Position numbers and translations under genes: made by a program. From an uncultured Acidimicrobiales bacterium (lineage in GTDB: Bacteria; Actinomycetota; Acidimicrobiia; Acidimicrobiales; CATQHL01): a stretch of DNA of 64,000 bases. The DNA lies in contig CATQHL010000001.1 in assembly GCA_958295925.1 (NCBI GenBank), forward strand, positions 2,280,780 to 2,344,779, read 5' to 3'. Below are positions 24,484 to 63,554 of the stretch, in pieces. The notes under the pieces are model-generated. The model worked only from the letters and a program-made list of their open reading frames with translations, made no database searches and was not told the DNA's origin. How positions within the stretch are numbered: position 1 is the first letter of the stretch; the number at the start of each line of letters is the position of its first letter.

Positions 24484-25107
24484 ATGCTCAACGCCTTGGT
24501 GAATTCGGGCGCAGGCGCCTCTCCCGTGCTGAGAGGTCGCCGCATTACCCTCCGCCCGCTGGTTTACAGGGACTTCAAGGAGTGGCGGGAGGTTCGCGTC
24601 CGCAACAGGGGGTGGCTGAGCCGCTGGGAGCCAGTGAAGCTTCCCGACGTGTCCGACCCCGACGTGAACCGAGGAGCCTTCGCCGCCCGCTGCTCGGTAA
24701 GGGACCAGGAGCGGGCCGCCGGCATCGGTTGGGGGTTCGGCGTGTTCGTGGGTGGCGCCCTCGCCGGCGAGATGAACATAACCAGCGTGGTCCGCGGGCC
24801 TTTTCAGTCGTGCAACTTCGGCTACTGGATCGACCAGGAACTGGCCGGGAACTCCTACATCCCCGAGGCCGTCGTGATCGGGCTGCGCTTCGTCTTCGAG
24901 GAGCTGATGCTTCACCGGGTGGAGATCGCCATCGTGCCCCGCAATCAGCGCAGCCTGAGGGTGGTCGAGAAACTCGGCCTGCGTTGTGAGGGCATCTCAG
25001 AGGGTTTCCTGGAGATAAACGGGGTCTGGGAAGATCACGTCCGCTTCGCCATCACCTCAGAGGAGTGGGCGCATAGGAGCAAGGAACTCTCCGACGCCTG
25101 GCTCTGA
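24484..25107 (+). CDS. GNAT acetyltransferase, RimJ/RimL type
   Basis: A 207-residue GNAT enzyme that moves an acetyl group from acetyl-CoA to an amine, possibly a ribosomal-protein N-terminus. RRITLRPLVYRDFKEW is the first strand/helix. FGYWIDQELAGNSYIPEAV and HRVEIAIVPRNQRSLRVVEK are the typical RimJ/RimL core and CoA-binding parts. It is the last core-type gene before the poly-C tract at the left edge of the restriction island. Confidence 0.9.
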   Translation: MLNALVNSGAGASPVLRGRRITLRPLVYRDFKEWREVRVRNRGWLSRWEPVKLPDVSDPDVNRGAFAARCSVRDQERAAGIGWGFGVFVGGALAGEMNITSVVRGPFQSCNFGYWIDQELAGNSYIPEAVVIGLRFVFEELMLHRVEIAIVPRNQRSLRVVEKLGLRCEGISEGFLEINGVWEDHVRFAITSEEWAHRSKELSDAWL

Positions 25108-25158
25108 GGGCTTGGCAAAAGCGCCGGCGTCACAGCGTAGGCTTATCGTTTTGACTCT

Positions 25159-25176
25159 CCCCCCCCCCCCCCCCCC
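25159..25176. repeat. Poly-C tract, 18 C
   Basis: An uninterrupted run of 18 C lies 48 nt before the ATG of the split Type ISP tail gene. The corresponding place before the second unit (30963–30969) has only 7 C. A short leader ORF (ATG 25181 to the TGA ending at 25240) follows and overlaps the tail gene's start. The tract sits where promoter or leader elements would be. Confidence 0.9.
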
Positions 25177-25223
25177 AGCCATGACACGCCTTTCCCGCCT
25201 TTCCCTCTCACGCATTCTCCCAC

Positions 25224-25928
25224 ATGACCTTGTTTTCTGATTCTGCTGCTGCGGTCGCCGACGCAGGCGACGGAGGCGTCGACAACATCACCGACTGGTG
25301 CCTGGAGCAGTTCCAAGAGCGCTACGGCAGCTCGAACGTCACCAAGGACGACATCTGGGAATACCTCTACGGCGTGATGCACGCCCCAGACTGGCGGGAG
25401 AAGTACAAGCACGATCTGCAGCGCAGCCTGCCCCGCGTCCCGCTCGCAGACGATTTTGAGGCGTTCCGGCGGGCAGGCCGGGAACTGATGGACTTGCACG
25501 TCAACTTCGAGACCGTCCCCGAGCACTCCGACGTTGTGTGCCTGGTCGACGAGCAGCCCGACGAGGGCGACAGCGACGACGAGGCATACCGGATCAACGG
25601 GAAGATGCGCTGGGCCCGCAACGCCGACACGAAAAAGCGGGACGACCGCACCTGCCTGGAGGTGAACGACCGCTGCAAGCTGAGGTCCATCCCCCTTCAG
25701 GCGCACGACTACACGGTCTCGGGGCGCTCCCCCCTGGAGTGGGCGATCGACAGCCTGCGCCAAAAGGTGGACAAGCCATCCGGCATAGTGGACGACCCCA
25801 ACGGATGGCATCGCTGGGCGGATGACCCCTTTGAACTCATCCGGCATCTGCGAAGGCTGACCTACCTGGGTGCGGAAAGCGCCCGCATTATCAGCGAACT
25901 TCCTGTTTCGCTGACCCGGCAGTCTTAA
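25224..25928 (+). CDS. Split Type ISP C-terminal specificity-tail domain
   Basis: A 234-residue stand-alone protein that matches the extreme C-terminal part of Type ISP restriction-modification enzymes: DNITDWCLEQFQERYG, KDDIWEYLYGVMHAPDWREK, AFRRAGRELMDLHVNFETV, SGRSPLEWAIDSLRQK and KPSGIVDDPNGW. In normal enzymes this segment is fused behind the target-recognition region. Here it precedes the big gene in its own ORF, and neither big gene carries it. It could act in trans with the large protein, or it could be the relic of a third upstream copy. The frame is closed by TGA at 25182, so the ATG at 25224 is the start. Confidence 0.85.
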   Translation: MTLFSDSAAAVADAGDGGVDNITDWCLEQFQERYGSSNVTKDDIWEYLYGVMHAPDWREKYKHDLQRSLPRVPLADDFEAFRRAGRELMDLHVNFETVPEHSDVVCLVDEQPDEGDSDDEAYRINGKMRWARNADTKKRDDRTCLEVNDRCKLRSIPLQAHDYTVSGRSPLEWAIDSLRQKVDKPSGIVDDPNGWHRWADDPFELIRHLRRLTYLGAESARIISELPVSLTRQS

Positions 25929-25945
25929 CCCACTAAGAAGTCAAG

Positions 25946-25999
25946 ATGCTGCTTCGAATCTCGCGGGGGGGGGGGGTAGCCCGCTTTGTCGCATCTTGA
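25946..25999 (+). promoter_or_regulatory. Leader ORF crossing a 12-G tract ahead of ISP gene 1
   Basis: ATG 25946 opens a 17-codon frame that crosses the tract of 12 G (25965–25976). It ends at TGA 25997–25999, overlapping the TTG start of the ISP gene (25986). One G fewer, or two more, puts TAG directly after the tract. One G more opens a long out-of-frame reading to about 26199. The tract may also serve as the Shine–Dalgarno, 9 nt from the TTG. Control by tract length is inference. Confidence 0.5.
25965..25976. repeat. Poly-G tract, 12 G, before ISP gene 1
   Basis: Twelve G in the context GC-G(12)-TAGCC, 9 nt upstream of the TTG start. Confidence 0.9.
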
Positions 26000-28900
26000 C
26001 GCGACTCTCAAGGAGCTTGGTTTTGACGATCCTTCCACGGCCGTCGGGGGGCGACGGTTTGAGCATTTCGTCCAGCAGGTTTTTCGGAAGCATCCGGGCG
26101 AATTCGGCAGGGAGCGTTTCAGAGATGTCTGGCTGTGGGACGAGTGGCCCGATCGTGAAAGCTGCGGTTACAGCACCGATTGCGGGATCGACCTTGTAGC
26201 CCGGCAGACCTGGGCGTACGGGGGCGGTCTTTGCGCCATTCAGTGTAAGTACCGCAGCGCCGGCTCGGTCTCCAAGAGGGAGGTTGACTCGTTCCTCGCC
26301 GCAGTCGGGTCGCCGTTTAGTTCTTCGCTGATCGTCTCCACGTCTGACATCGCCAAGAATGGTGTGGAGAAGATTCAAAGGGCCTCCCCGCAGTGCCAGA
26401 TTCTTTATTCCGCTGAGATGGACGACTGGGTGGACGACTGGCGGCTTTATGTCGAGAGCCCGGAGTCTTTCGAGATTCCCCCGCCGAGGAAGTATGAGTT
26501 GTTTGATTTCCAGCGTGATGCCCTTGAAGCGGTTTCCGGCGGGCTTTCCAGAGGCGGCCGGGGGAAGTTGATTCTGCCTTGCGGTACGGGCAAGTCGTTC
26601 GTGGCGTTGCGGATCGCGGAGCGGCTGGCGGGGGAGGGGGGGCGTGTGCTTTATCTTGTGCCGTCCATCGCCCTGGTGGGGCAGACGATGCGGGAGTGGT
26701 CGGCGCAGCGCGCTTTGCGTCTGGAGTATCTGGGGGTGTGTTCCGACGCGACTGCGGGCAGGAAGTCGTCGAGGCGGGTGGACCTGGCCGGTAATCTCGC
26801 CGAGTTGGCGATCCCTGTCACGACCGATCCCGGGAAGATTCGTGAGCGGCTTGAGGCTCCTCTCTCGCCTGGGGTCATGCAGGTGGTGTTCAGCACGTAT
26901 AACTCCTCGCCGCGGGTTCAAGAAGCTGTCGAGGTCGGTGATGCGATATTTGACTTGATCATCTGTGATGAGGCGCACCGGACCACTGGCATCGAGTCGT
27001 CCGCGGGTGAGGCGTCCTATTACCGCATTGTTCATAGCGATGACTGCATACCTGCTTTCAGGCGGTTGTATATGACGGCTACTCCAAGGGTTTTCACTGA
27101 GGGTTTGAAGCGGAAGCTTGCCGTGAACGAAGACCCTGACTGCTACGACATGAACGACGAGAGCGTTTACGGCAATGAGCTTTATCGGATGTCTTTCGGC
27201 GAGGCGGTCAAGGCTGGCCACTTGTCGGAGTATGAGATTCTGGTGATAGCCGCCGGCGCCGACTCCTACTTGCAGTCGATTGGGAATTCCCATGACCTGA
27301 TTGTCGGGTCCGACAAGGCGGTCTCCCTCGACGACGCTGTGAAGTTGGCGGGGTGCTGGGACGCGCTGTCGTCCCCTGAGACCACCGAGGTGTCCCCTGG
27401 GAAGAGCCCTGGGCAGATAGCGCCCGACGGTGGAGCGCCTGCCCGCTCGGCTATCGCTTTCACCAACCGGGTGGACACCAGCAAGTGGGTGGCGGGGAAC
27501 TGGCGCAAGGTTGTCGACGCCATCTCCGCCGATAATCAGCAGTCGAACGGCAGGCAGCGGTCGGATTCGTTCCTGCGCCTGGATGTCGGCCACGTCGACG
27601 GCAGCACTCCCGCTTCAGAGCGTGTCAAGTATCTGCGAAAGCTGGAGCAGCGGGATTCGGCGCAGTCAAACGGTGATCAGGTGTGCCAAATCGTCAGCAA
27701 CGCGCGGGTGCTGTCTGAGGGTGTGAACGTTCCTTCCCTCGATGCTGTGCTGTTCCTCGATCCCCGCAGCAGCCCCATCGACATCACCCAGCAGGTGGGC
27801 AGGGTGATGCGAAGGGCGCCTGGGAAGGAGAAGGGCTACATAGTGATTCCCGTGGTGGTCCCTGAGTTGTCAGATCCCAAGGAAGTTCTAGAGGCCAGCA
27901 GTTGGGATGTGGTCTGGCGGGTGGTGAAGGCTCTCCGGTCTCACGATGAGCGGCTCAGCTACTACGTCAATAACGCGTCCGCCTGGGAGAAGAACGCTCC
28001 TATGCAGTTCAGGGTGTCCAGACTCGGGCAGACCGAGGACGACACAGGCGAATTCCACAGAGCTCAGATGATTCAGCTGGAACTCGCACTGAACAAACAG
28101 ATCGCCTCAATGGTCGTAGACATATGCGGCGATCGGAACGTTTATCCCACCTGGGGAAAACGGGCGGCCGACGTTTGCCAGCAAATACAGAAACGCATTG
28201 AATACCTGACTGGCCTTGGAGGCAAATGCGAGCCGGCATTTAAAGAATTCTTGGAGGGGCTAAAGGGTTCAGTGCGGAGAGATGTCACCGTCGGAGAAGC
28301 TCAACAGATGATAGCTCAGCACATTGTCACTATTCCTATTTTCGATGCAATGCTGGGCAAGAACGAGTTTTCGCAGCAAAACCCGGTTAGCAAAGATGTC
28401 GAACGGCTGCTGCGGTATTTCAATAGTCAGGGCGTCTATTTTGACGGTGACACTAGACATTTGACGCGCGCTTATGAAGGTATGCGCGAGGCATTCGAAG
28501 GGGCTGTTTCAAGCTCTGAAAGAATCGATATCCTCCGTCGGACTTATGAGGAGTTCTTCAAGCTGGCAATGAAAGATACCGTAAAGCGGATGGGGATTGT
28601 CTACACACCTGTTGAAATCGTGGACTTCATTATTCGTTCGGTGACAGCTATCTGCAAGCAGGAATTCAAGAAAAACATTAGCCAGGAAAATGTTAATGTA
28701 TTGGATGCATTTGCTGGAACTGGAACTTTCCTAGCAAGACTATTGGAAATGCGCGACGACGATGGCGAGTACATTATTCGAGATCAAGATCTGGATAGAA
28801 AGTATCAAGAGGAACTGCACGCCAATGAGACAGTTCTGCTGGCGTATTATATTGCTGCTTTGAGAATAGAAGAAGCAAAACATTCTCGCGATGAAGAGCG

Positions 28901-30557
28901 ATTCCAAGGCCTTGTGGAATACGTCCCTTTCGATAAGATATTGCTAACTGATACATTTCATGGTTTGCCGAGTGATATGCAATTACCTGGCTTCCTAGAT
29001 GACAATATTAAGAATCGGCTAGCACAAGATATGTCCTGGATAGAGATCATAATTGGAAACCCTCCCTGGTCGTCGGGCCAGAAGTCTGCAGGAGACGACA
29101 ATCCCAATATTGAGTACGATGAGATTAGCCAGAGAATCAAAGACACTTATGGGGTTAAGCACAAAGAAATTACGGGGAAAGCAGCTGGTGGCAACGCTTC
29201 AGGTAATTTGTATTTGAAAGCCCTGCGATGGGCAACTGATAGGATATTACCTTGTGAAGGGAGAGGTGACCATCCTGCAGTAATCAGTATTGTACATCCA
29301 AATTCCTTAACAGATGCTACTTCTCTAGCCGGTGTGCGAGCAACGTTGCGTGAAGAATTCAGCGACATCTATATTGTCAACCTGCGAGGAAATGCTTATA
29401 AGAGTGGTGAGGAGTTTAAGAAAGAAGGTGACAAGATTTTTGGGGGTGGTTCCCGCAACGGGGTGCAGATTACGTTTTTAGTACGTTATCCCGATGAGAA
29501 TCTTTCAAAGCCAGCAACACTGCATTATGTGCAGGTGCCTGACTATATGAACTTGAAGCAAAAATTCGAGTGGCTAAAGAAACTCGGTGATATCACAAGT
29601 CCAATATTTGATAAAGTACCTATAGCTAGTAAGCATGATTGGGTTAATCTAAGTGATGGCTCCTATAATAAATTGTTGACAGTTTGCGGTAATGCTAAGC
29701 TGAATGATAGCGTTGCGGTTAATCTTCATGCTTCAGGTGTGAAGACAAATTCTGATGTATATGTCTATTCATTTAGTCGTGTGGAACTCGAAAGGAAAAT
29801 GCGAGTACTCATAGATGCCTATAATGCGGCACTGTACGATATTGGAGACAGTCCTAGCTCTGCCGACTTCGAGGACGCTACCGAGAACGATCGTCTACAT
29901 GCCATAAAGTGGACAGGAACGCTTAAATCAAGCTTAAAGCAACAAAAGAAAATCGAGTTCGAGCCGTGGCGAATCCGAGAAGTGTTGTATCGCCCGTTTA
30001 CGAAGCTGTGGCTATACGAAGACGACCGGATTCTGTCGTCGGTAAAGACGGTCTCCAAGATGTTCCCGCGTGATGAATCGGCTGACGGATCTCGTGGTGA
30101 AAACAGGGTTTCTGCAGATGCTGGTGATCCCGAAAGCGAAATAAGCGGGGGGGGGGGGGCATTCTTGTCACAACGCCCTCGAACAAGGCCGTCTTCGGGG
30201 TTCTCGCCTCGCGATGCATCGGGGACCTTTGCGCGGTCGGAACGCAGCAGGCCAGTCGAGCGTTTACGAGACAGCGATCCTTCTGACGGGGCCGTCGAAC
30301 ATGGCGACATTTGGGGTGCTGTCGACCAGCCAAATTCCAGATCTGCATTCGATGGCGTCCGGTCAGCAGACGAGAGTGATCCCGAAGAAGAAATAACGCG
30401 GGGGGGGGGGGGCCTCCAAGCCACAATCCTCATTATGCGAGACACGCAGCTTCCGTTCGCGGCCTTTGCGACGAGATGCCTCCCAGATCTCCACGTCACG
30501 GGCCGACCGACTCGCAACCTCCCCAAGACTCTGCCCACCCGAACCCGGCGATCCTGA
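25986..30557 (+). CDS. Type ISP single-chain restriction-modification enzyme, copy 1
   Basis: A 1523-residue enzyme. An Mrr-like nuclease (D69 in CGIDLVA, Q86-x-K88 in AIQCKYR) is followed by a superfamily 2 translocase: Walker A PCGTGKS (198–204), DEAH in ICDEAHRTTG, MTATPR and QQVGRVMRR. An N6-adenine methylase comes next, with motif I LDAFAGTGTF near 907 and motif IV GNPPWSSGQ near 1025. The target-recognition part ends in TVSKMFPR. Family enzymes modify one strand and cut when convergent translocating molecules collide. Motif I reads DAF where copy 2 has DPF. Beyond about 1360 the protein runs out of homology through a G tract, crosses two cassettes in the wrong frame, crosses a second tract and ends in cassette C3. 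The TTG start is forced by TAG at 25977. The second half is more AT-rich than the first. Confidence 0.9.
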   Translation: MSHLDATLKELGFDDPSTAVGGRRFEHFVQQVFRKHPGEFGRERFRDVWLWDEWPDRESCGYSTDCGIDLVARQTWAYGGGLCAIQCKYRSAGSVSKREVDSFLAAVGSPFSSSLIVSTSDIAKNGVEKIQRASPQCQILYSAEMDDWVDDWRLYVESPESFEIPPPRKYELFDFQRDALEAVSGGLSRGGRGKLILPCGTGKSFVALRIAERLAGEGGRVLYLVPSIALVGQTMREWSAQRALRLEYLGVCSDATAGRKSSRRVDLAGNLAELAIPVTTDPGKIRERLEAPLSPGVMQVVFSTYNSSPRVQEAVEVGDAIFDLIICDEAHRTTGIESSAGEASYYRIVHSDDCIPAFRRLYMTATPRVFTEGLKRKLAVNEDPDCYDMNDESVYGNELYRMSFGEAVKAGHLSEYEILVIAAGADSYLQSIGNSHDLIVGSDKAVSLDDAVKLAGCWDALSSPETTEVSPGKSPGQIAPDGGAPARSAIAFTNRVDTSKWVAGNWRKVVDAISADNQQSNGRQRSDSFLRLDVGHVDGSTPASERVKYLRKLEQRDSAQSNGDQVCQIVSNARVLSEGVNVPSLDAVLFLDPRSSPIDITQQVGRVMRRAPGKEKGYIVIPVVVPELSDPKEVLEASSWDVVWRVVKALRSHDERLSYYVNNASAWEKNAPMQFRVSRLGQTEDDTGEFHRAQMIQLELALNKQIASMVVDICGDRNVYPTWGKRAADVCQQIQKRIEYLTGLGGKCEPAFKEFLEGLKGSVRRDVTVGEAQQMIAQHIVTIPIFDAMLGKNEFSQQNPVSKDVERLLRYFNSQGVYFDGDTRHLTRAYEGMREAFEGAVSSSERIDILRRTYEEFFKLAMKDTVKRMGIVYTPVEIVDFIIRSVTAICKQEFKKNISQENVNVLDAFAGTGTFLARLLEMRDDDGEYIIRDQDLDRKYQEELHANETVLLAYYIAALRIEEAKHSRDEERFQGLVEYVPFDKILLTDTFHGLPSDMQLPGFLDDNIKNRLAQDMSWIEIIIGNPPWSSGQKSAGDDNPNIEYDEISQRIKDTYGVKHKEITGKAAGGNASGNLYLKALRWATDRILPCEGRGDHPAVISIVHPNSLTDATSLAGVRATLREEFSDIYIVNLRGNAYKSGEEFKKEGDKIFGGGSRNGVQITFLVRYPDENLSKPATLHYVQVPDYMNLKQKFEWLKKLGDITSPIFDKVPIASKHDWVNLSDGSYNKLLTVCGNAKLNDSVAVNLHASGVKTNSDVYVYSFSRVELERKMRVLIDAYNAALYDIGDSPSSADFEDATENDRLHAIKWTGTLKSSLKQQKKIEFEPWRIREVLYRPFTKLWLYEDDRILSSVKTVSKMFPRDESADGSRGENRVSADAGDPESEISGGGGAFLSQRPRTRPSSGFSPRDASGTFARSERSRPVERLRDSDPSDGAVEHGDIWGAVDQPNSRSAFDGVRSADESDPEEEITRGGGGLQATILIMRDTQLPFAAFATRCLPDLHVTGRPTRNLPKTLPTRTRRS
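30064..30144 (+). pseudogene. Remnant cassette C0 before the first 3' G tract
   Basis: In the +1 frame relative to the gene, this reads NRLTDLVVKTGFLQMLVIPK then AK and TAA. That matches the end of cassette C2 (IPDLH...TRVIPKKK, TAA). It looks like a degenerate earlier cassette now read in the wrong frame as DESADGSRGENR. Confidence 0.55.
30147..30159. repeat. Poly-G tract, 13 G: first 3' switch of ISP copy 1
   Basis: Thirteen G. Downstream all three frames stay open into a cassette or the next tract. The frame as assembled passes on to the second tract, another gives cassette C1 (stop 30286), and the third gives cassette C2 (stop 30396). Confidence 0.9.
30160..30286 (+). other. C-terminal cassette C1 (copy 1)
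   Basis: In its own frame it encodes ILVTTPSNKAVFGVLASRCI, GDLCAVGTQQASRAF and a short end. This has the strand and IPDLH-like core of Type ISP C-terminal regions. It is out of frame with the gene as assembled. A partner lies at 35580–35703 in copy 2. Confidence 0.75.
30274..30396 (+). other. C-terminal cassette C2 (copy 1)
   Basis: Encodes AILLTGPSNMATFGVLSTSQ, IPDLHSMASGQQTRVIPKKK and TAA. The C1 stop lies inside its first codons. The matching cassette of copy 2 (35437–35562) is the one in frame there. Differences between the two are mostly synonymous (hand count 6 synonymous, 3 non-synonymous codons). Confidence 0.8.
30400..30412. repeat. Poly-G tract, 13 G: second 3' switch of ISP copy 1
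   Basis: Thirteen G directly after the C2 stop. The three frames beyond it lead to cassettes C3 (30557), C4 (30679) and C5 (30792); none is closed earlier. Confidence 0.9.
30413..30557 (+). other. C-terminal cassette C3 (copy 1, in frame as assembled)
   Basis: Encodes TILIMRDTQLPFAAFATRCL, PDLHVTGRPTRNLPK and a short Arg-rich end. It is unique to copy 1; copy 2 has no counterpart. Confidence 0.75.
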
Positions 30558-30679
30558 TCAACCAGACGCAGCAGTTGCCGTTCGCGACCCTGGCGGCGAA
30601 TCTGCTGTTCGACCTGTGCGCCACAGGTCGCCAGACCCGAGCCCTGCCCAAGTCGCCGCCCGAGCGGCAATCGTCGTAA
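30548..30679 (+). other. C-terminal cassette C4 (copy 1)
   Basis: Encodes AILINQTQQLPFATLAANLL, FDLCATGRQTRALPK and a short end. Its first codons contain the C3 stop (CGATCCTGA read in another frame). Counterpart at 35692–35825. Confidence 0.75.
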
Positions 30680-30792
30680 CCACCCCATCCAACAGGGTGC
30701 GCCCGGCCGTCCTGGCCACCGACGCACTGCCTGACCTGCACGTAATAGACCCGGCCGGAAGGGCGATCCCCCGCACCCAACTTTCCGCATAG
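30667..30792 (+). other. C-terminal cassette C5 (copy 1)
   Basis: Encodes AIVVTTPSNRVRPAVLATDA, LPDLHVIDPAGRAIPRTQ and a stop. The C4 stop (TCGTCGTAA) lies inside its first codons. Against copy 2 I count 6 synonymous and 1 non-synonymous codon differences, a strong sign that this frame is translated. Confidence 0.8.
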
Positions 30793-30934
30793 GTGAATCC
30801 CGTAGAGGGATTTCACGAAACACAAAGAACTTTGTCACACCCGGGTGCAAGAATTGCATTGGAGTGCTTCGGAAACCACGATGCCTTGATTACCGACAGC
30901 AATAATCCCTGTATACGTCGTCCGCTTATTGCCG

Positions 30935-30980
30935 GTGTCATAGCGTAGGCTTATCGTTTGGTCCCCCCCAGCTATGACAC
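30935..30980. repeat. 10-bp inverted repeat flanking the C7 tract
   Basis: GTGTCATAGC (30935–30944) and GCTATGACAC (30971–30980) are perfect inverted copies around a 26-nt loop with the C run. A direct copy of the right arm lies at 30999–31008. The equivalent arms near 25130 and 25180 are degenerate. Possible hairpin or protein-binding site. Confidence 0.6.
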
Positions 30981-31020
30981 GCCTTTCCAGCCTTCCCCGC
31001 TATGACACGCCTTCCCCCAC

Positions 31021-31186
31021 CCGCTCGCAGACGATTTTGAGGCGTTCCGGCGGGCGGGCCGGGAGCTGATGGACTTGCACGTCAACTTCGAGACCGTCCC
31101 CGAGCAACCCGAAGTTGTTTGCCTGGGTGCCGAAAGCGCCCGCATCGTCAGCGAACTTCCTGTTTCGCTGACACGGCAGTCTTAAC
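31021..31186 (+). pseudogene. Internally deleted copy of the split Type ISP tail gene
   Basis: Reads LADDFEAFRRAGRELMDLHV, NFETVPEQPEVVCL, then jumps to GAESARIVSELPVSLTRQS and TAA. Compared with 25224–25928 it lacks the N-terminal ~70 residues and an internal stretch of about 110 residues. The internal deletion joins in frame at a shared CCTGG. No usable start is seen. Decayed copy 2 equivalent. Confidence 0.8.
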
Positions 31187-31202
31187 CCACTTAAAGGTCA
31201 GG

Positions 31203-31256
31203 ATGCTGCTCGCGAATCTCGCGGGGGGGGGGGTAGCCCGCTTTGTCGCATCTTGA
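31203..31256 (+). promoter_or_regulatory. Leader ORF crossing an 11-G tract ahead of ISP gene 2
   Basis: ATG 31203 (AAAGGTCAGG just upstream) opens a 17-codon frame that crosses 11 G and ends at the TGA at 31254–31256, overlapping the TTG start at 31243. An extra base before the tract compensates for one G fewer than in copy 1, so the leader has the same frame and the same VARFVAS end in both units. Confidence 0.5.
31223..31233. repeat. Poly-G tract, 11 G, before ISP gene 2
   Basis: Eleven G in the context GC-G(11)-TAGCC, 9 nt upstream of the TTG start. Confidence 0.9.
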
Positions 31257-34200
31257 CGCGACTCTCAAGGAGCTTGGTTTTGATGACCCTTCCACGGCCG
31301 TCGGGGGGCGCCGGTTTGAGCATTTCGTCCAGCAGGTTTTTCGGAAGCATCCGGGCGAATTCGGCAAGGAGCGTTTCAAAGATGTCTGGCTGTGGGATGA
31401 GTGGCCCGATCGTGAAAGCTGCGGCTACAGCACCGACTGCGGAATCGATCTTGTAGCCCAGCAAACCTGGGCGTACGGGGGCGGTCTCTGCGCCATTCAA
31501 TGTAAGTACCGCAGCGCCGGCTCGGTCTCCAAGAGGGAGGTTGACTCGTTCCTCGCCGCGGTCGGGTCGCCTTTTGGTTCTTCGTTGATTGTCTCCACGT
31601 CTGACATCGCCAAGAATGGTGTTGAGAAGATTCAAAGGGCTTCCCCGCAGTGCCAGATTCTCTATTCCGCCGAGATGGACGACTGGGTGGACGACTGGCG
31701 GCTCTATGTCGAGAGCCCGGAGTCTTTCGAGATTCCCCCGCCGAGGAAGTATGAGTTGTTTGACTTCCAGCGTGATGCCCTTGAAGCGGTTTCCGGCGGG
31801 CTTTCCGAGGGCGGCCGGGGGAAGTTGATTCTGCCTTGCGGTACGGGCAAGTCGTTCGTGGCGTTGCGGATAGCGGAGCGGCTGGCGGGTGAGGGGGGGC
31901 GTGTGCTGTATCTTGTGCCGTCCATCGCCCTGGTGGGGCAGACGATGCGGGAGTGGTCGGCGCAGCGTACTTTGCCTCTGGAGTATCTGGGGGTGTGTTC
32001 CGACGCGACTGCGGGCAGGAAGTCGTCGAGGCGGGTGGATTTGGCGGGCAATCTCGCCGAGTTGGCGATCCCTGTCACGACCGATCCCGTGAAGATTCGT
32101 GAGCGGCTTGAGGCTCCTCTCTCGCCTGGGGTCATGCAGGTGGTGTTCAGCACGTATAACTCATCGCCGCGGGTTCAGGAAGCTGTCGAGGTCGGTGATG
32201 CGATATTTGACTTGATCATCTGTGATGAGGCGCACCGGACAACTGGCATCGAGTCGTCCGCGGGTGAGGCGTCCTATTACCGCATTGTTCATAGCGACGA
32301 CCATATACCTGCTTTCAGGCGGTTGTATATGACGGCTACTCCAAGGGTTTTCACCGAGGGTTTGAAGCGGAAGCTTGCCGATAACGAAGACCCTGACTGC
32401 TACGACATGAACGACGAGAGCGTCTACGGCAAGGAGCTTTACCGGATGTCTTTCGGCGAGGCGGTCAAGGCTGGCCACTTGTCGGAGTATGAGATTCTGG
32501 TGATAGCCGCGGGCGCCGACGCCTACTTGCAGTCGATGGGGAACTCCCATGACCTGATTGTCGGGTCCGACGAGGCGGTCTCCCTCGACGACGCCGTGAA
32601 GTTGGCGGGGTGCTGGGACGCCCTGTCGTCCCCTGAGACCACCGAGGTGTCCCCTGGGAAGCGCCCTGGGCAGATAGCGCCCGACGGCGGCGCGCCTGCC
32701 CGCTCGGCTATCGCTTTCACCAACCGTGTGGACACCAGCAAGTGGGTGGCGGGGAACTGGCGCAAGGTTGTCGAAGCAATCTCCGCCGGCAATCAGCAGT
32801 CCGGTTCGTTCCTGCGCCTGGATGTCGGCCACGTCGACGGCGGCACTCCCGCTTCGGAGCGTGTCAAGTGTCTGCGAAAGCTGGAGCAGCGGGATTCGGC
32901 GCAGTCAAACGGTGATCAGGTGTGCCAAATCGTCAGCAACGCTCGGGTGCTGTCTGAGGGCGTGAACGTCCCTTCCCTCGATGCTGTGCTGTTCCTCGAT
33001 CCCCGCAGCAGCCCCATCGACATCACCCAGCAGGTGGGCAGGGTTATGCGAAGGGCGCCTGGGAAGGAGAAGGGCTACATAGTGATTCCCGTGGTGGTCC
33101 CTGAGTTGTCGGACCCCAAGAAAGTCCTCGAGGCCAGCAGTTGGGATGTGGTCTGGCGGGTGGTGAAGGCTCTCCGATCTCACGATGAGCGGCTCAGCTA
33201 CTACGTCAATAACACGTCCGCCTGGGAGAAGAACGCTCCTATGCAGTTCAGGGTGTCCAGACTCGGGCAGACCGAGGACGACACAGGGGAATTCCACAAA
33301 GCTCAAATGATTCAGCTGGAACTCGCACTGAACAAAGAGATCGCCTCAATGGTCGTAGACATATGCGGCGATCGCAACCTATACCCCACCTGGGGAAAAC
33401 GAGCAGCCGACGTTTACCGAAACTTGCAGGCTCGCATAGATAACGTGACTGGCCCAGGTGGTAAGTGCAAGCCAGCTTTTGAAGAGTTTTTGAAGGGAAT
33501 AAAGGGTTCTGTCCGGCGAGAGGTAACTGTTGAGGAGGCTCAACAGATGATAGCTCAGCACATTGTTACTATTCCTATTTTCGATGCAATGCTGGGCAAG
33601 AACGAGTTTTCGCAGCAAAACTCTGTAAGCAAAGACGTCGAGCGACTATTAAGGCATTTTAATAGTCAGGGCGTCTATTTTGATGGTGATACTAGATATT
33701 TGACGCGCGCCTATGAAGGTATGCGCGAAGCATTCGAAGGGGCGGTTTCAAGCTCTGAAAGAGTCGACATCCTCCGCCGGATCTACGAGGAGTTCTTCAA
33801 ATTGGCGATGAAAGATACCGTAAAGCGGTTGGGAATTGCCTACACACCTGTTGAAATCGTGGACTTTATTATTCGTTCGGTGACAGCTATCTGCAAGCAG
33901 GAATTCAAGAAAAACATTAGCCAGGAAAATGTTAATGTATTGGATCCATTTGCTGGAACTGGAACTTTCCTAGCAAGACTATTGGAAATGCGCGACGACG
34001 ATGGCGAGTACATTATTCGAGATCAAGATCTGAATCGAAAGTATCAAGAGGAACTGCACGCCAATGAGACATTTCTGCTAGCGTATTATATTGCTGCTTT
34101 GAAAATAGAAGAAGCAAAACATTCTCGCGATGAAGAGCGATTCCAAGGCCTTGTGGAATACGTCCCTTTCGATAAGATATTGCTAACTGATACATTTCAT

Positions 34201-35562
34201 GGTTTGCCGAGTGATATGCAATTACCTGGCTTCCTAGATGACAATATTAAGAATCGGCTAGCACAAGATATGTCCTGGATAGAGATCATAATTGGAAACC
34301 CTCCCTGGTCTGCTGGTATGAAGGTAGCTGGTGACGACACTCGAAGTATCGAATATCCAAACATCTCCAAGAGGATAAAAGCCACTTACGGAAAGAGGCA
34401 TCACGAAGTAACAGGAAAGGCTGGAGGAAAGGCATTCGGCAACCTTTACGTTAAGGCTATCCGCTGGTCAACAGACCGGATATTGACCAAAAGGGAGGGA
34501 ACGGAACATCCAGCAGTTATCGGTTTTGTTCATCCAAATTCCCTTGTGGATGGCCCCTCTCTTGCCGGTGTGCGAGCAGCGTTGCGTGAAGAATTCAGCG
34601 ACATCTATATTGTCAACCTGCGTGGAAATGCTTATAAGAGTGGCGAGGAGCGTCAACAAGAAGGCGACCCAGTATTTCAGCAAAGTACAAGAAATGGGGT
34701 TCAAATTACTTTCTTGGTTCGTAAGCTAAAAAAGAATCTTTCAGAGCCAGCAACACTGCATTATGCACAGGTGCCGGACTATATGGATTTGAAGCAAAAG
34801 TTCGAGTGGCTTAAGAATCTTGGCGATATTACAAGCTCAATACTGGAGGAAGTACCCATCACTAGTGAGCATGATTGGGTTAATCTTAGTGATGGCTCCT
34901 ACAAAGAATTATTGAAAGTATGTGATACTTCAAAGAAAAATGAGAAAGTTGCATTTGGTAATCATGCCCTTGGTTTGACTACAAATTGTGATACTCATGT
35001 ATATTCCTTTAGTCGAGAAGTACTTGAGAAAAAAGTACGTGAACTCATTGAAGCGTATAACGAAGCTCTTTACGATCTTGGCGATAATTCCAGCGCTATT
35101 GGCGTAGAAAGAGCTATCCAACAAAGTCGCCTACATGCTATTAAGTGGACAGGCAAGCTTAAATCAAGCCTAAGGCAGAAAAAGCAGATCGAGTTCGAAC
35201 CGTGGCGCATTCGTGAGGTGTTGTATCGCCCATTTACAAAGTTATGGCTATACGAGGACGACAGAATCTTGTCGTCAGTAAAGACGGTCTCAAAGATGTT
35301 CCCGCGTGGTGATGAAGTTGAATCTATCGGTTTCTCAAACGCCTCGAGCAGAGGAATGGCGGATTCTTTGTTGGCTTCTAGCACGGTGGCGGATTTGAAT
35401 AATTTGCGGGGGGGGGGGGGGGCGTCTCAGTGTCAGGAGGCGATCCTTCTGACGGGGCCGTCGAACATGGCGATGTTCGGGGTGCTGTCGACCAGCCAAA
35501 TTCCAGATCTGCACTCGATGGCGTCCGGGCAGCAAACGCGAGCGATCCTGAAAAAGAAATAA
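31243..35562 (+). CDS. Type ISP single-chain restriction-modification enzyme, copy 2
   Basis: A 1439-residue paralogue of copy 1. The nuclease and helicase parts (to about residue 690) are almost identical to copy 1. A short divergent block (VYRNLQARIDNVTGPGG) follows, then a nearly identical methylase core with motif I LDPFAGTGTF near 900. From GNPPWSAGM onward the target-recognition region is clearly diverged, so the two proteins probably recognise different sites. The reading frame passes SKMFPRGDEVESIGFSNASS, a VADLNNLR segment and a 15-G tract, and ends in cassette C2' (ILKKK). The normal tail domain is absent. DNA turns AT-rich within the gene, as in copy 1. Confidence 0.9.
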   Translation: MSHLDATLKELGFDDPSTAVGGRRFEHFVQQVFRKHPGEFGKERFKDVWLWDEWPDRESCGYSTDCGIDLVAQQTWAYGGGLCAIQCKYRSAGSVSKREVDSFLAAVGSPFGSSLIVSTSDIAKNGVEKIQRASPQCQILYSAEMDDWVDDWRLYVESPESFEIPPPRKYELFDFQRDALEAVSGGLSEGGRGKLILPCGTGKSFVALRIAERLAGEGGRVLYLVPSIALVGQTMREWSAQRTLPLEYLGVCSDATAGRKSSRRVDLAGNLAELAIPVTTDPVKIRERLEAPLSPGVMQVVFSTYNSSPRVQEAVEVGDAIFDLIICDEAHRTTGIESSAGEASYYRIVHSDDHIPAFRRLYMTATPRVFTEGLKRKLADNEDPDCYDMNDESVYGKELYRMSFGEAVKAGHLSEYEILVIAAGADAYLQSMGNSHDLIVGSDEAVSLDDAVKLAGCWDALSSPETTEVSPGKRPGQIAPDGGAPARSAIAFTNRVDTSKWVAGNWRKVVEAISAGNQQSGSFLRLDVGHVDGGTPASERVKCLRKLEQRDSAQSNGDQVCQIVSNARVLSEGVNVPSLDAVLFLDPRSSPIDITQQVGRVMRRAPGKEKGYIVIPVVVPELSDPKKVLEASSWDVVWRVVKALRSHDERLSYYVNNTSAWEKNAPMQFRVSRLGQTEDDTGEFHKAQMIQLELALNKEIASMVVDICGDRNLYPTWGKRAADVYRNLQARIDNVTGPGGKCKPAFEEFLKGIKGSVRREVTVEEAQQMIAQHIVTIPIFDAMLGKNEFSQQNSVSKDVERLLRHFNSQGVYFDGDTRYLTRAYEGMREAFEGAVSSSERVDILRRIYEEFFKLAMKDTVKRLGIAYTPVEIVDFIIRSVTAICKQEFKKNISQENVNVLDPFAGTGTFLARLLEMRDDDGEYIIRDQDLNRKYQEELHANETFLLAYYIAALKIEEAKHSRDEERFQGLVEYVPFDKILLTDTFHGLPSDMQLPGFLDDNIKNRLAQDMSWIEIIIGNPPWSAGMKVAGDDTRSIEYPNISKRIKATYGKRHHEVTGKAGGKAFGNLYVKAIRWSTDRILTKREGTEHPAVIGFVHPNSLVDGPSLAGVRAALREEFSDIYIVNLRGNAYKSGEERQQEGDPVFQQSTRNGVQITFLVRKLKKNLSEPATLHYAQVPDYMDLKQKFEWLKNLGDITSSILEEVPITSEHDWVNLSDGSYKELLKVCDTSKKNEKVAFGNHALGLTTNCDTHVYSFSREVLEKKVRELIEAYNEALYDLGDNSSAIGVERAIQQSRLHAIKWTGKLKSSLRQKKQIEFEPWRIREVLYRPFTKLWLYEDDRILSSVKTVSKMFPRGDEVESIGFSNASSRGMADSLLASSTVADLNNLRGGGGASQCQEAILLTGPSNMAMFGVLSTSQIPDLHSMASGQQTRAILKKK
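35320..35407 (+). other. Cassette-like segment Cx before the G tract (copy 2)
   Basis: In frame: IGFSNASSRGMADSLLASST, VADLNNLR, then the G tract as Gly4. It aligns with the cassettes (SSTVADLN against STSQIPDLH) and looks like the original C-terminal segment. The G tract encodes the glycines where family proteins often have a Gly-rich turn. Confidence 0.55.
35408..35422. repeat. Poly-G tract, 15 G: first 3' switch of ISP copy 2
   Basis: Fifteen G. As assembled the gene enters cassette C2' (stop 35562). A second frame runs open to the next tract; the third stops after about ten codons (TGA 35450–35452). Confidence 0.9.
35437..35562 (+). other. C-terminal cassette C2' (copy 2, in frame as assembled)
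   Basis: Encodes AILLTGPSNMAMFGVLSTSQ, IPDLHSMASGQQTRAILKKK and TAA. Counterpart of 30274–30396. Confidence 0.8.
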
Positions 35563-35565
35563 CGC

Positions 35566-35579
35566 GGGGGGGGGGGGGG
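35566..35579. repeat. Poly-G tract, 14 G: second 3' switch of ISP copy 2
   Basis: Fourteen G directly after the C2' stop. The three frames lead to C1' (35703), C4' (35825) and C5' (35935). Confidence 0.9.
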
Positions 35580-35703
35580 CATCCTTGTCACAGCACCCTC
35601 GAACAAGGCGGTCTTCGGGGTTCTCGCCTCGCGATGCATCGGAGACCTTTGCGCGGTCGGAACGCAGCAGGCCAGTCGAGCGTTTCCGAGATGGCGATCC
35701 TGA
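35580..35703 (+). other. C-terminal cassette C1' (copy 2)
   Basis: Encodes ILVTAPSNKAVFGVLASRCI, GDLCAVGTQQASRAFPRWRS and TGA. Compared with C1 it keeps FPRW, closest to the typical family end. It lies after C2' here but before C2 in copy 1: the order is shuffled. Confidence 0.75.
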
Positions 35704-35825
35704 TCAACCAGACGCAGCAGTTGCCGTTCGCGACTTTGGCGACGAATCTGCTGTTCGACCTGTGCGTCACAGGGCGTCAGACCCGAGCCCTGCCCAAGTC
35801 GCCGCCCGAGTGGCAATCGTCGTAA
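35692..35825 (+). other. C-terminal cassette C4' (copy 2)
   Basis: Encodes AILINQTQQLPFATLATNLL, FDLCVTGRQTRALPK and a stop. Its first codons overlap the C1' stop. Confidence 0.75.
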
Positions 35826-35935
35826 CCACCCCGTCCAACCGAGTCCGCCCGGCCGTCCTGGCCACTGTCGCACTGCCTGACCTGCACGTAATAGATCCGG
35901 CCGGAAGGGCGATCCCCCGTACCCAACCTCTTTGA
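35815..35935 (+). other. C-terminal cassette C5' (copy 2)
   Basis: Encodes IVVTTPSNRVRPAVLATVAL, PDLHVIDPAGRAIPRTQPL and TGA. Last cassette of the island. Confidence 0.75.
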
Positions 35936-36338
35936 GGCTTATCCGGTCAAATTAGTAAGGACTTGAGCCTTCATTTCTCGGCTAGCTGCTAGTCGATCGC
36001 AACGGTGCCGCGACATGGTGCAGGCTCCGTTGCGCGGAGCGAAACAGCAATCTTCAGCAGTGTCACCCAGTCAGGCAATCAAGCAATTCTCCATAGCCGA
36101 CGATCTCTAAGCAGTCGCCGAGCTTCAGTGGGATGCACGTAGGGAGCGGTGTCATAGGGGTTTGGTATGTTGAGTATCAAAGGAAAGCGTGTCGTGACTA
36201 CTTTTGGCCACAAGGCCAACTCAAGAATTACTTAGTTGGCCTCAGCAGGAAACCTAAGACACTCAGGAAAAGAAACAAGCATCTTTAACAATATCATACT
36301 TTACATCAGAAATATGAGAACAATAGCGGGAGAAGGCT
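35936..36338. other. Non-coding, AT-richer stretch after the ISP island
   Basis: No gene recognised. A palindrome TTGGCC-ACAA-GGCCAA lies near 36206–36222, with TTGGCC repeated soon after. GTGTCATAG near 36140 recalls the inverted-repeat arm at 30935. No tRNA or attachment site could be identified. Confidence 0.5.
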
Positions 36339-36860
36339 ATGAAGAATCCTAGATTAATAGAACTAAACAGTAAGCAGACAAAGGAAACAGCTAAACTTGG
36401 CATATTAGGATTCGCAGTATTTGCATGTGGATTGTGGTTCTGGATATGCCTTATCGGAACACCATCTAGTGAATTTACTACGAAGTCATTAGCAGGAGTT
36501 ATCGTTTCTATGGTACTTGGTGGTTTCGCAATCAGGGGAATGATTAAAGCCATTCCCGGATATTCTGATGCTCAGTATGAGTATTTGAAGCTGAAACGTG
36601 AACTAAAAGGTAAAGCAGTGCCAAAACAAGTGAGCAAAAATAGTTATACTGCTTCTTCGATAACTTGTATTCTTGCAATTCTCGTGTTTGTTCACATTGT
36701 TGGATGTTCAATTGCTCGTCATACTCATGAGTCAGTGTATTATAGTGATTGCTCGTTTACTCATTTGCATGTACGTCTAGATAGTCATATTCATCCACTT
36801 GACTATGAATTGCCGCAAGAATATACTAATTGTATAAATAGGGAACGTAATAGTTACTAG
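36339..36860 (+). CDS. AT-rich three-membrane-segment protein of unknown function
   Basis: A 173-residue protein I cannot assign. GGGAGAAGGCT before the ATG is a good Shine–Dalgarno. Hydrophobic segments at about residues 20–40 (LGILGFAVFACGLWFWICLI), 49–68 and 106–124 (SSITCILAILVFVHIVGC) suggest a membrane protein. A His-rich soluble end (HLHVRLDSHIH) follows. Base composition and AT-ending codons differ sharply from the chromosome, pointing to recent transfer. It lies between the ISP island and a broken sodC, so it may be an accessory or effector gene of the island; nothing in the sequence proves that. Confidence 0.7.
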   Translation: MKNPRLIELNSKQTKETAKLGILGFAVFACGLWFWICLIGTPSSEFTTKSLAGVIVSMVLGGFAIRGMIKAIPGYSDAQYEYLKLKRELKGKAVPKQVSKNSYTASSITCILAILVFVHIVGCSIARHTHESVYYSDCSFTHLHVRLDSHIHPLDYELPQEYTNCINRERNSY

Positions 36861-36972
36861 AAATATGGTGATGCGATAGTTGCAGCGCTTCTCAAGAGCT
36901 GTTTGGGTGGATTGCAACCCGAAGAGAGGGAGAGTGGAGGTCTGACTTTGGGTTGAGGGTCGAGTTAACGCT

Positions 36973-37185
36973 CTACGACACCGCAGGAGACGCGGCCACC
37001 GGCACCGGCGCCTTGCCGTAGGTGTCGGGCTTCTCGTGGATGATGACGGACGATCCGTCCGCGTCGAAGAGCGGATGGACGGGACCTGACGCCAGGGTCA
37101 CCGCGTCTGTGAAGTAGTTGGCTCTCGCTGAGCTGTCCACTGCTACGTGGATGTTGGGCAGGTGGCCTGCTGCAAGGCTGTCACA
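36973..37185 (-). pseudogene. Truncated Cu/Zn superoxide dismutase (C-terminal remnant)
   Basis: The minus strand reads AAGHLPNIHV, FTDAVTLASGPVHPLFDADG and SSVIIHEKPDTYG, then a stop at 36973. This is the end of a SodC-type protein with its His and electrostatic-loop region. The N-terminal two thirds are missing; upstream (plus side) the sbcD-like gene begins. An open frame continues through that gene but has no SodC similarity. It probably marks a rearrangement breakpoint at the island edge. Confidence 0.75.
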
Positions 37186-56300: not shown

Positions 56301-56589
56301 GCTCCGCCCCTGCCAGCAGTCGCATCACGCCGCCACCTGCGACGAAGCGGGCGACGCCCGCCGCTGCGCTCAGGAAGGCGGAGGAGGCGAAGTAGCCCGC
56401 AACCCGGTCGTATCGCACCGCCCGCTGCAGCACCGGGACGTAGAAGGCCGTCAGCAGATTCTGCGAGCCGCCGTAGTGGGGGAGAAGGTCGAGGTCGGCG
56501 AAGCCGCTGGCGCCCGTTCCGGTTGCGGCGCCGTCGCCGACAGCGCCCGAGCCGCGCTCGAGCGGCTTGACAGCGGCAGGGTCAGTCAT
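53371..56589 (-). CDS. PLD-nuclease / SNF2-type helicase of anti-phage operon
   Basis: A 1072-residue protein. The N-terminal phospholipase-D-like nuclease domain has a HxK motif in YFHSKWGILGD and GSINESARGW (about residues 175–205). An SF2/SNF2 helicase follows: Walker A LLADEVGLGKTIEIGLAL, box II VFVDEVHHARRRG, SATPMQLH, and motifs V–VI TDSMSEGLNLQTCARLF and EQRIGRVDRIGG. Such helicases accompany DUF499/DUF1156 methylase modules in phage-resistance clusters. Last gene of the minus-strand operon; its start lies in a duplicated initiation region. Confidence 0.88.
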   Translation of the reverse strand: MTDPAAVKPLERGSGAVGDGAATGTGASGFADLDLLPHYGGSQNLLTAFYVPVLQRAVRYDRVAGYFASSAFLSAAAGVARFVAGGGVMRLLAGAELTEADRDALLGRAPLDDVLARRLLHDADLPDDTKPLEDELRRRRFEVIAWLVREGRLQIRIGLPCDADGVPLVGDHDDNVGYFHSKWGILGDAAGKRIVFHGSINESARGWAGNFETFDVHASWRASWESHGQHRVAEFERLWQGRNVGGWKTVPLPEAVERSLVKLARPEPDWVPEGRDPLEPEPAPTPLTDEERSLLLAVRDAPLSRSGVGLVSAGVHPWPHQVAIARRIVETWPRSYLLADEVGLGKTIEIGLALRELLLSGVVSTALLLVPASVLKQWQEELSEKLLLEVPSLDLGARRLCWGSGRSEAILPGRNPWRAAPVLLASSHLARRRRHREELLNGEAWDLVFVDEVHHARRRGTRPSDSPNQLLSTLIGLERNGMWQVLLAASATPMQLHTHDLWDVLALMGLPERWGDGAERMEGYFKELQEPFQVRRWGFLLEMLAAQIGFAEPDEAVKESIKEELGWVGANRLFDVHATGLDSYGIEEIPHTRRRCWDEWLRANTPVRDRVFRTTRTTLRKYADDGLLADDDAIPTRKVDDRFCDLGDAQALYDRIEDYILRYYNAYLQSEMRNAPLGFVMTVYRRRLTSSFHAVRRSLERRLELLRNRRGDLADLLEEDDVYALEASTSFEEADLGAAGGDLQEEIAELEGFVGDLSARPPDEPKMELLHRLLREGFDEGHRTAVVFTQYTDTLDYIRDQLRPAYGEAVLCYSGRGGERWSASGGCWRPLPKEKVKELFRWGEGRILIGTDSMSEGLNLQTCARLFNFDLPWNFMRVEQRIGRVDRIGGRPKVQVTNFFYKGTVEEDIYTRIAERHDWFTHVVGNAQPVLASTESLFEQAAMRQRTSAETADALAGMIERLEEAPLRMENLDSVPRPKGDLSPEMDLNGLRTALFKIGAARERFTEHPEHEGAWLLKLGNGCYGVTFDQSTCQDKPGLSLLSWGNALLGRLIEELLADGRGTECKRLGWRP

Positions 56590-56682
56590 TCAGGGGTAAG
56601 TCGTTGGCGGAGTCGGTCGCCCGCGCAATATCTTCCCCGCCTGTCCTGAGATGCTGGTCATTCAGAGGTGAGTCGTTGGCGG
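56585..56682. repeat. Duplicated start region and 23-codon leader ahead of the helicase gene
   Basis: A 26-bp block at 56585–56610 (including the helicase ATG) is repeated at 56657–56682 with two mismatches. On the minus strand the upstream ATG (56661) opens a 23-codon ORF ending in TGA (56592–56590) that abuts the helicase ATG. A translational-coupling leader is possible. Confidence 0.6.
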
Positions 56683-56696
56683 GGAATCTCCCCGGA

Positions 56697-59660: not shown

Positions 59661-59666
59661 CCCCGC

Positions 59667-63489: not shown

Positions 63490-63501
63490 GGGGGGGGGGG
63501 G
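63490..63501. repeat. Poly-G tract, 12 G
   Basis: Twelve G in the context TATGC-G(12)-AAGTGG, upstream of the anti-phage operon. Confidence 0.9.
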
Positions 63502-63537: not shown

Positions 63538-63554
63538 GGGGGGGGGGGGGGGGG
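63538..63554. repeat. Poly-G tract, 17 G
   Basis: Seventeen G in the context AATGC-G(17)-AGCGGG, the second-longest run of the window (after 18 C at 25159). Confidence 0.9.

What the first reader, a model, noticed from the sequence alone, without database searches (positions are those of the whole stretch)
30147..30792. Frame-selected chain of five alternative C-termini behind two poly-G tracts (ISP copy 1)
After the 13-G tract at 30147–30159 all three frames are open and each has a distinct destination: cassette C1 (stop 30286), cassette C2 (stop 30396), or on to a second 13-G tract (30400–30412). After that tract the frames again lead to three cassettes, C3 (30557), C4 (30679) and C5 (30792). 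All five cassettes have the same protein pattern (ILVT-PSN or related, LxTxxLPDLH-like core, R-x-I/F-P). Slippage by one base would thus swap the C-terminus instead of switching the gene off. I know phase-variable R-M genes and shuffled specificity domains, but not a C-terminal cassette chain in alternating frames.
Basis: partly seen in the sequence, partly recalled or inferred. Interest (0 to 1): 0.95.

Follow-up and report, generated by a model that had tools for sequence, protein, structure and literature searches.

The report
Frame-selected target-reading tails of restriction enzyme
Two neighbouring restriction-enzyme genes of one bacterium each end in a row of related, interchangeable tail pieces laid in different reading frames behind runs of G, so that a gained or lost base would swap the piece predicted to read part of the enzyme's DNA target instead of merely switching the enzyme off.

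Summary
Both ISP copies end in ~40-residue cassettes in different frames behind poly-G tracts (copy 1: two tracts, five cassettes; copy 2: two tracts, four). The design recurs in 20 distinct loci of the same order (89 cassettes), where the repeat is G, C, GA, AC or a 4- or 5-base unit. Behind 37 repeat blocks, 101 of 111 frames lead to a cassette or the next block. Cassettes out of frame in their own assembly are still under purifying selection in their own frame. The cassette matches the piece of the Type ISP recognition domain holding Loop VI, which reads base pair +3 in LlaGI and LlaBIII; the base-reading positions are among those that best separate the cassette classes. The domain's remainder (guide) is a separate gene, 25224-25928. 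Likely mechanism: replication slippage selects one of up to 2k+1 recognition segments behind k tracts. Two-state precedents exist (H. pylori Type IIG, NgoAV, 'C-terminal phase variation'); eight literature searches showed no multi-state chain of homologous cassettes. Slippage in cells and specificity change are untested.

The parts
25224..25928 (+). Split-off guide part of the Type ISP target-recognition domain (234 aa), presumed partner subunit of both copies
   Evidence: Pfam Type_ISP_C positions 166-339 of 342, E 5e-48; matches LlaBIII 1401-1572 and the LlaGI C-terminus
25965..25976 (+). 12-G tract just before the TTG start of ISP copy 1; possible expression switch
   Evidence: function inferred only
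25986..30146 (+). ISP copy 1, constant part: Mrr nuclease, helicase, coupler, N6-MTase, first part of the recognition domain
   Evidence: Pfam; relation to LlaBIII/LlaGI tested on copy 2, 88% identical to copy 1 over the match
30147..30159 (+). G13 tract 1 of copy 1
30160..30286 (+). Cassette C1 (profile match 30161-30271, stop 30286); Cys at the Loop VI reader position
30274..30396 (+).
30400..30412 (+). G13 tract 2 of copy 1
30423..30557 (+).
30548..30679 (+).
30667..30792 (+).
31020..31190 (+). Deleted remnant of a second copy of the guide gene
   Evidence: profile pieces 31021-31125 (E 2.3e-14) and 31117-31179 (E 0.11); repeats D7, D8
31223..31233 (+). 11-G tract just before the TTG start of ISP copy 2
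31243..35407 (+). ISP copy 2, constant part
35408..35422 (+). G15 tract 1 of copy 2 (one frame is a dead end at 35452)
35440..35562 (+). Cassette C2' of copy 2, in frame in this assembly
35566..35579 (+). G14 tract 2 of copy 2
35581..35703 (+). Cassette C1' of copy 2
35694..35825 (+). Cassette C4' of copy 2
35813..35935 (+). Cassette C5' of copy 2

Best explanation
This is the 3' end of a split Type ISP restriction-modification gene in which slippage at repeat tracts likely selects, by reading frame, one of several homologous ~40-residue segments that are predicted to complete the target-recognition domain and so change the DNA sequence the enzyme reads. Shown here: repeat tracts with non-triplet units lie between the constant part and the cassettes; typically two frames behind a tract end in two different cassettes and the third runs on to the next tract; the last tract serves up to three, so k tracts can hold up to 2k+1 cassettes; the cassette aligns with the segment of ordinary Type ISP domains that holds Loop VI; the guide part that follows it in ordinary Type ISP enzymes is encoded as a separate gene; cassettes not in frame are still selected as protein. 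Inferred: tract length changes by replication slippage (the genome has NucS and no detectable MutS, and NucS does not correct indels); the guide protein binds the constant part plus cassette in trans; the cassette sets the reading of base pair +3 and perhaps neighbours; because nuclease and methylase share the one recognition domain, restriction and protective methylation would switch together, which would diversify phage defence and the methylome within a clone.
For: Anatomy exact. 20 distinct loci, 89 cassettes, 84 of 89 reachable by an open frame from a repeat tract; 19 of 20 assembled reading frames end at a cassette stop, the other runs off its contig (L082 dropped as a second copy of L037). 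111 frames behind 37 repeat blocks: 83 end at a cassette, 18 reach the next block, 8 dead, 2 run off the contig. Repeats in these regions by unit length: 1 base 34, 2 bases 8, 3 bases 1 (inside a cassette), 4 bases 6, 5 bases 1. Selection: 47 overlapping pairs of homologous cassettes, substitutions by codon position 295/139/692, syn/nonsyn 677/449 in the cassette frame against 233/847 and 107/977; 13 non-overlapping pairs with neither member in frame: 130/98, synonymous fraction 0.57 against 0.28 (maximum 0.36 of 500) for random placement. Non-redundancy: 4 within-locus class duplicates against 15.4 expected, 0 of 5000 shuffles as low. Location: Type_ISP_C is matched at 3-144 by the ISP ORF of copy 2 and at 166-339 by the guide ORF; cassette profile against seven contiguous ISPs, hhalign probability 94.6, E 6.7e-8, 37 aligned columns spanning the whole cassette; the modelled constant part superposes on LlaGI 829-1337, ending before Loop VI at 1365-1374. 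Reader positions: among the 38 columns listed, those equivalent to LlaGI G1372, H1368 and Q1373 rank 1st, 2nd and 7th in information about the class (2.03, 1.92 and 1.71 bits, with 0.18, 0.28 and 0.14 bits left within classes), over 70 cassettes of the six classes with five or more members; these residues read +3 in LlaGI, as N1360 does in LlaBIII. Guide gene found beside 18 of 20 loci. Natural states: public proteins P0137 and P0145 are 99.8% identical over 833 aa but read the DNA behind tract 1 in two different frames; P0128 and P0132 (97.5% over 1467 aa) show the cassette frame and the read-through frame. MutS_V 0 matches, NucS_C 1 match; NucS cannot correct indels (PMC8228993, passages).
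Against: No reads were available, so tract-length change within a population is not shown; differences between public contigs may include homopolymer sequencing errors. 5 of 89 cassettes are unreachable by frame alone (L058 two, L066 two, L067 one) and 8 of 111 frames are dead. Pairs that include an unreachable cassette still look selected (64/54 against 26/87 and 14/102, 4 pairs), so expression by frame is not the only way a cassette can be used. Of the 120 closest database proteins 20 have no cassette hit, and in 4 of the 100 with one no repeat-type peptide was recognised before it. Reaching a far cassette adds a long read-through linker (about 90 residues before C3 in copy 1; more in P0141), whose harmlessness is unproven. 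The cassette is modelled poorly (blocks of pLDDT about 44-60) without the guide partner, so its structural place rests on sequence profiles. No assay shows a specificity change or guide binding. The class-information ranking is partly circular, because the classes were made from whole-cassette identity. Three open frames alone are not improbable. The chains of P0137 and P0144 differ in cassette order as well as frame, so recombination also changes the terminus. The genome is 93.9% complete, so the absence of MutS is not proof.
Confidence: 0.78

Rival explanations
1. The out-of-frame cassettes are mainly a silent store for recombination, as in silent hsdS or pilin copies; the tracts only switch the gene on and off or serve as crossover points.
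For: Cassette modules have changed order between copies 1 and 2 with breaks at the G tracts (repeats D5, D6); near-identical cores carry different chains (P0137, P0144); 5 of 89 cassettes are unreachable by frame yet look selected.
Against: 84 of 89 cassettes are reachable by an open frame and 101 of 111 frames are productive; a silent store does not need every frame kept open or repeat units that avoid three. No long inverted repeats flank the cassettes.
Confidence: 0.1
2. Transcriptional or ribosomal slippage on the tracts makes several C-termini at once in one cell, instead of a heritable switch.
For: Runs of 9-15 G are also plausible slippage sites for polymerase or ribosome (recalled general knowledge, not tested).
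Against: The same place carries GA, AC, 4-base and 5-base repeats in relatives, which should not favour one-base slippage on RNA; near-identical public genes are predicted in different frames from their DNA.
Confidence: 0.08
3. The cassette exchange alters something other than target specificity, such as guide docking, activity level or escape from a phage inhibitor.
For: The cassette lies between core and guide of the recognition domain; specificity was not measured.
Against: The most class-specific positions include the base readers of Loop VI, and a small exchanged recognition piece does change specificity in H. pylori Type IIG enzymes.
Confidence: 0.1
4. The pattern is an accident: stop-poor GC-rich DNA, decayed C-termini and homopolymer sequencing errors.
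For: Three open frames alone arise in 2129 of 20000 Markov sequences; the source is an assembled genome without reads.
Against: Homologous cassettes under frame-specific purifying selection, 20 loci with different repeat types, 0 hits on the opposite strand.
Confidence: 0.02

Closest known systems
Helicobacter pylori Type IIG enzymes JHP1272 / HP1353-HP1354 (PMC3936762)
   Same: A second homopolymer tract decides whether a small TRD-like piece is added at the C-terminus; the change of specificity (GGWTAA to GGWCNA; CRTTRA to CRTCNA) was shown by SMRT sequencing; the first tract is on/off (passages and section 25 read).
   Different: Two specificities only, addition of one domain instead of exchange among homologous cassettes, other enzyme class, no chain of cassettes over several tracts, no split guide gene.
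NgoAV Type I system, poly-G in hsdS1 (PMC9577141)
   Same: Poly-G slippage changes the target specificity of an R-M system (passages read).
   Different: Truncated versus fused HsdS, two specificities; no cassettes in alternative frames.
C-terminal phase variation (PMC2823697; PMC5320596)
   Same: A 3' repeat tract switches the C-terminus among three frames; in NGK_1211 the third frame reads on into the next gene (passages read).
   Different: In the passages read the alternative tails are not described as related to one another, and in most H. canadensis cases the length changes by only a few residues; here they are homologous, conserved domain segments, repeated over several tracts.
Type ISP enzymes LlaGI and LlaBIII (PDB 5ffj, 4xqk; PMC4872093)
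   Same: Same domain order and homologous recognition domain (outline and sections 15, 16, 18 read).
   Different: Single polypeptide with one fixed recognition domain; here split, with an exchangeable Loop VI segment.

Membership tests
Type ISP restriction-modification enzyme | Mrr nuclease, SF2 helicase, ISP coupler, N6-adenine MTase and Type_ISP_C in this order | tested here: met
   Pfam hits above cut-off in both copies
Type ISP restriction-modification enzyme | All activities including the whole recognition domain in one polypeptide | tested here: not met
   Type_ISP_C split 3-144 / 166-339 between two ORFs. So: derived from and working like Type ISP, but a two-protein form
Type ISP restriction-modification enzyme | Sequence-specific methylation and translocation-dependent cleavage | not testable with these tools
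   needs protein and SMRT or nanopore methylomes
C-terminal phase variation | Repeat tract near the 3' end whose three frames give different C-termini without loss of the protein body | tested here: met
C-terminal phase variation | Tract length varies within a population | tested here: inconclusive
   near-identical public proteins sit in different frames, but no reads
Repeat-driven specificity switching (NgoAV, Hpy Type IIG) | The switched segment belongs to the target-recognition domain | tested here: met
Repeat-driven specificity switching (NgoAV, Hpy Type IIG) | Switching changes the methylated motif | not testable with these tools
   no methylome available
Recombination-driven TRD shuffling (hsdS invertons) | Inverted repeats with a recombinase invert specificity segments | tested here: inconclusive
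   Inverted repeats of 16 nt or more in 25000-37000 are the C/G runs and two pairs inside coding sequence (I3 at 30021-30040 / 35257-35276 and I6), none flanking the cassettes of one copy; no recombinase among the ORFs scanned, which are only part of the window

The most novel reading that the evidence does not exclude
A frame-addressed specificity library: one restriction gene stores up to 2k+1 homologous target-reading segments behind k repeat tracts, and the set of tract lengths acts as an address that picks one. The recognition domain was cut in two, with its far half in a separate gene, so that a mid-domain segment could become an exchangeable C-terminus. Lineages have swapped the repeat type (G, C, GA, AC, 4-base, 5-base) while keeping the logic.
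Probability: 0.62. Interest if true: 0.96.

Novelty: new variant of a known kind. Interest (0 to 1): 0.93.

Why it matters
The repeat-driven switches that I found in print choose between on and off or between two specificities. Here the repeat would choose among up to seven (in the loci seen) recognition segments, so a clone could spread over many defence specificities and methylomes by small length changes. It gives a natural set of interchangeable Loop VI modules for a recognition code that PMC4872093 calls partial, and a natural split point of Type ISP enzymes. The prediction (the cassette decides base +3) is directly testable by methylome sequencing.

Tried and rejected
Openness of three frames as proof: rejected as weak. 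Phage or plasmid origin: no relative in viral contigs; 2 phage records and 152 plasmid records with matches, all below 60% identity, not examined for cassettes. Spread outside the order: of 396 genomes of the phylum 4 had a match at E 1e-150 or better, two of them outside the order, both contiguous enzymes without runs of 8 or more G or C in the fetched stretch. The second subfamily L081 (32% identity; AC24 and G12 tracts with other tails) looks like an independent case, but its tails were not shown to be homologous to each other, and at the strict cut-off of 1e-200 only its own genome matched (1 of 397). A search for guide genes over the class did not complete.
Full report
WHAT IS THERE. The window is G000:C2:2280780-2344779 of a 3.2-Mb genome; the one named relative found by a scan with this gene is a MAG of an uncultured Acidimicrobiales bacterium. 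Two tandem genes, 25986-30557 and 31243-35562, have the Type ISP domain order and are 88% identical in protein over the matched stretch. Copy 1 ends with tract G13 (30147-30159), C1, C2, tract G13 (30400-30412), C3, C4, C5; copy 2 with tract G15, C2', tract G14, C1', C4', C5'. All coordinates and stops of the finding are exact. As assembled, copy 1 reads C3 after a linker of about 90 residues and copy 2 reads C2'.

SAME DESIGN ELSEWHERE. A search of 397 genomes of the order gave 27 genomes with a match at E 1e-150 or better. By my tally, 17 of these 27 carry a cassette chain, 6 an ISP without a chain (L073, L075, L076, L077, L078, L079; L075 is interrupted by a stop), 1 a distant ISP with AC24 and G12 tracts (L081), and in 3 the 3' end was not seen. 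A cassette profile, built from 13 seeds and iterated twice, found 100 hits over 36 stretches, all on the gene strand, none on the other. After dropping L082 (same locus as L037), 20 distinct loci with 89 cassettes remain; 84 are reachable by an open frame from a repeat. Neighbouring cassettes behind one repeat step by -1 frame, with one exception (L058, cassettes 2 to 3, where a tract may have been lost). The first repeat is G in 6 loci, C in 2, a mixed G/C stretch with unread bases in 1, GA in 6, AC or CA in 2, a 4-base unit in 2 and a 5-base unit in 1. Counts of all repeats by unit length are 34, 8, 1, 6 and 1 for 1 to 5 bases; the single triplet lies inside a cassette.

ADDRESSING RULE. Typically two frames behind a repeat end in two cassettes and the third runs to the next repeat; the last repeat serves up to three. 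Of 111 frames behind 37 repeat blocks, 83 end at a cassette, 18 reach the next block, 8 are dead ends and 2 run off the contig. Counting merged runs as one block, the maximum 2k+1 is reached with k = 1 (L063, L064, L070), k = 2 (L052, L056, L060, L072, L083, copy 1) and k = 3 (L071); four chains keep one OFF frame at the first tract (copy 2, L037, L059, L065), and four more dead frames lie in L037 (tract 4), L062, L067 and L074. Loci rarely hold two cassettes of one class: 4 duplicates against a mean of 15.4, none of 5000 shuffles as low.

SELECTION. Between homologous cassettes of different loci (47 overlapping pairs of equal length, 72-98.5% identical) substitutions fall 295/139/692 on the three codon positions of the cassette frame; syn/nonsyn is 677/449 there against 233/847 and 107/977 in the other frames. 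In 13 non-overlapping pairs where neither cassette is in frame in its assembly, the synonymous fraction is 0.57; random placement gives 0.28, at most 0.36 in 500 trials. Cassettes that are silent in the assembly are therefore translated often enough to be selected: the strongest indirect evidence that the terminus does switch. Against frame as the only route: 4 pairs with an unreachable cassette show much the same (64/54 against 26/87 and 14/102).

THE SPLIT. The guide gene stands beside 18 of 20 chain loci (the two window copies share one), upstream or downstream; for L061 and L072 the contig ends. In L065 it is itself in two pieces around a G tract. In five ISPs without a chain the guide is inside the ISP ORF (L073, L076, L077, L078, L079). 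The third ISP of this genome (L003) has a C16 run at the core-guide junction with the guide in another frame, an ordinary on/off arrangement that may resemble the ancestral step. A protein search with the guide gene gave 469 relatives of 769 candidates; the search admits only 0.55 to 1.75 times the query length, and the 120 listed are 220-334 aa.

NATURAL STATES. 7786 of 7997 scored candidates are relatives of the MTase-to-cassette part. Of the best 120, which include the two window copies, 100 end in a cassette within 30 residues of the C-terminus, 20 have no cassette hit and none has a fused guide. P0137 and P0145 (99.8% over 833 aa) read the DNA behind the first tract in the read-through and the OFF frame; P0128 and P0132 (97.5% over 1467 aa) show the cassette and the read-through frame; the three frames behind L037 tract 1 give the homologous three peptides. 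Sequencing error in homopolymers cannot be excluded, and clustering of the database at 90% biases which pairs are seen.

MECHANISM. Replication slippage fits best: the unit lengths at the switch points shift the frame, and MutS_V has no match in the genome (93.9% complete) while NucS_C has one; the review PMC8228993 (passages) states that NucS cannot correct indels. Recombination adds rearrangement: modules 30147-30281 and 30274-30412 recur in other order at 35567-35701 and 35440-35578.

WHAT IS KNOWN. Eight literature searches aimed at this question (open-access library only, capped listings read) showed no paper on a chain of homologous cassettes; two others served the LlaGI/LlaBIII and NucS papers. 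Closest: H. pylori Type IIG specificity switching by a second homopolymer tract (PMC3936762, passages and section 25), NgoAV (PMC9577141, passages), C-terminal phase variation (PMC2823697 and PMC5320596, passages). A 2025 review of phase variation (PMC11868660) holds none of the terms C-terminal, reading frame or Type ISP in its main text. I therefore file it as a new variant of repeat-driven specificity switching, at the far end of that kind.

Noticed in passing
25965-25976 and 31223-31233: G12 and G11 tracts directly before the TTG starts of both ISP copies; an upstream ATG mini-ORF runs through the tract and ends just inside the gene in both copies, so tract length may tune translation.
   Followed up: partly
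25159-25176: C18 run upstream of the guide gene, possibly an expression switch of the partner.
   Followed up: no
G000:C2:2351821-2355840 (L003, L038): Third Type ISP gene of the genome, with C16 at the core-guide junction and the guide in another frame: on/off type.
   Followed up: partly
53371-63376, minus strand: Defence-like module: PLD/SNF2 helicase-type ORF, DUF1156 methylase, DUF499 ORF with a G11 run inside (61583-61593) and G12 and G17 runs upstream (63490-63501, 63538-63554).
   Followed up: no
G000:C2 about 250-290 kb (L039, L040) and elsewhere: Genome-wide there are 67 + 38 overlapping windows of 12 G, several inside open frames that recur between loci: a large set of possibly phase-variable genes.
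   Followed up: partly
L081 / L095 (G132:C110): Distant Type ISP (32% identity) with AC24 then G12 and four different tails in alternative frames; possibly an independent origin of the same design.
   Followed up: partly
L092 (G100:C20:48500-58000): Further chain with two G10 tracts, four clear and one weak cassette, and a guide gene; found late and not counted.
   Followed up: partly
P0141: Predicted protein that reads through four glycine-run (G-tract) segments before its terminal cassette, suggesting chains of four tracts.
   Followed up: no
31020-31190: Remnant of a second guide gene, deleted in the middle, between the two ISP copies.
   Followed up: yes
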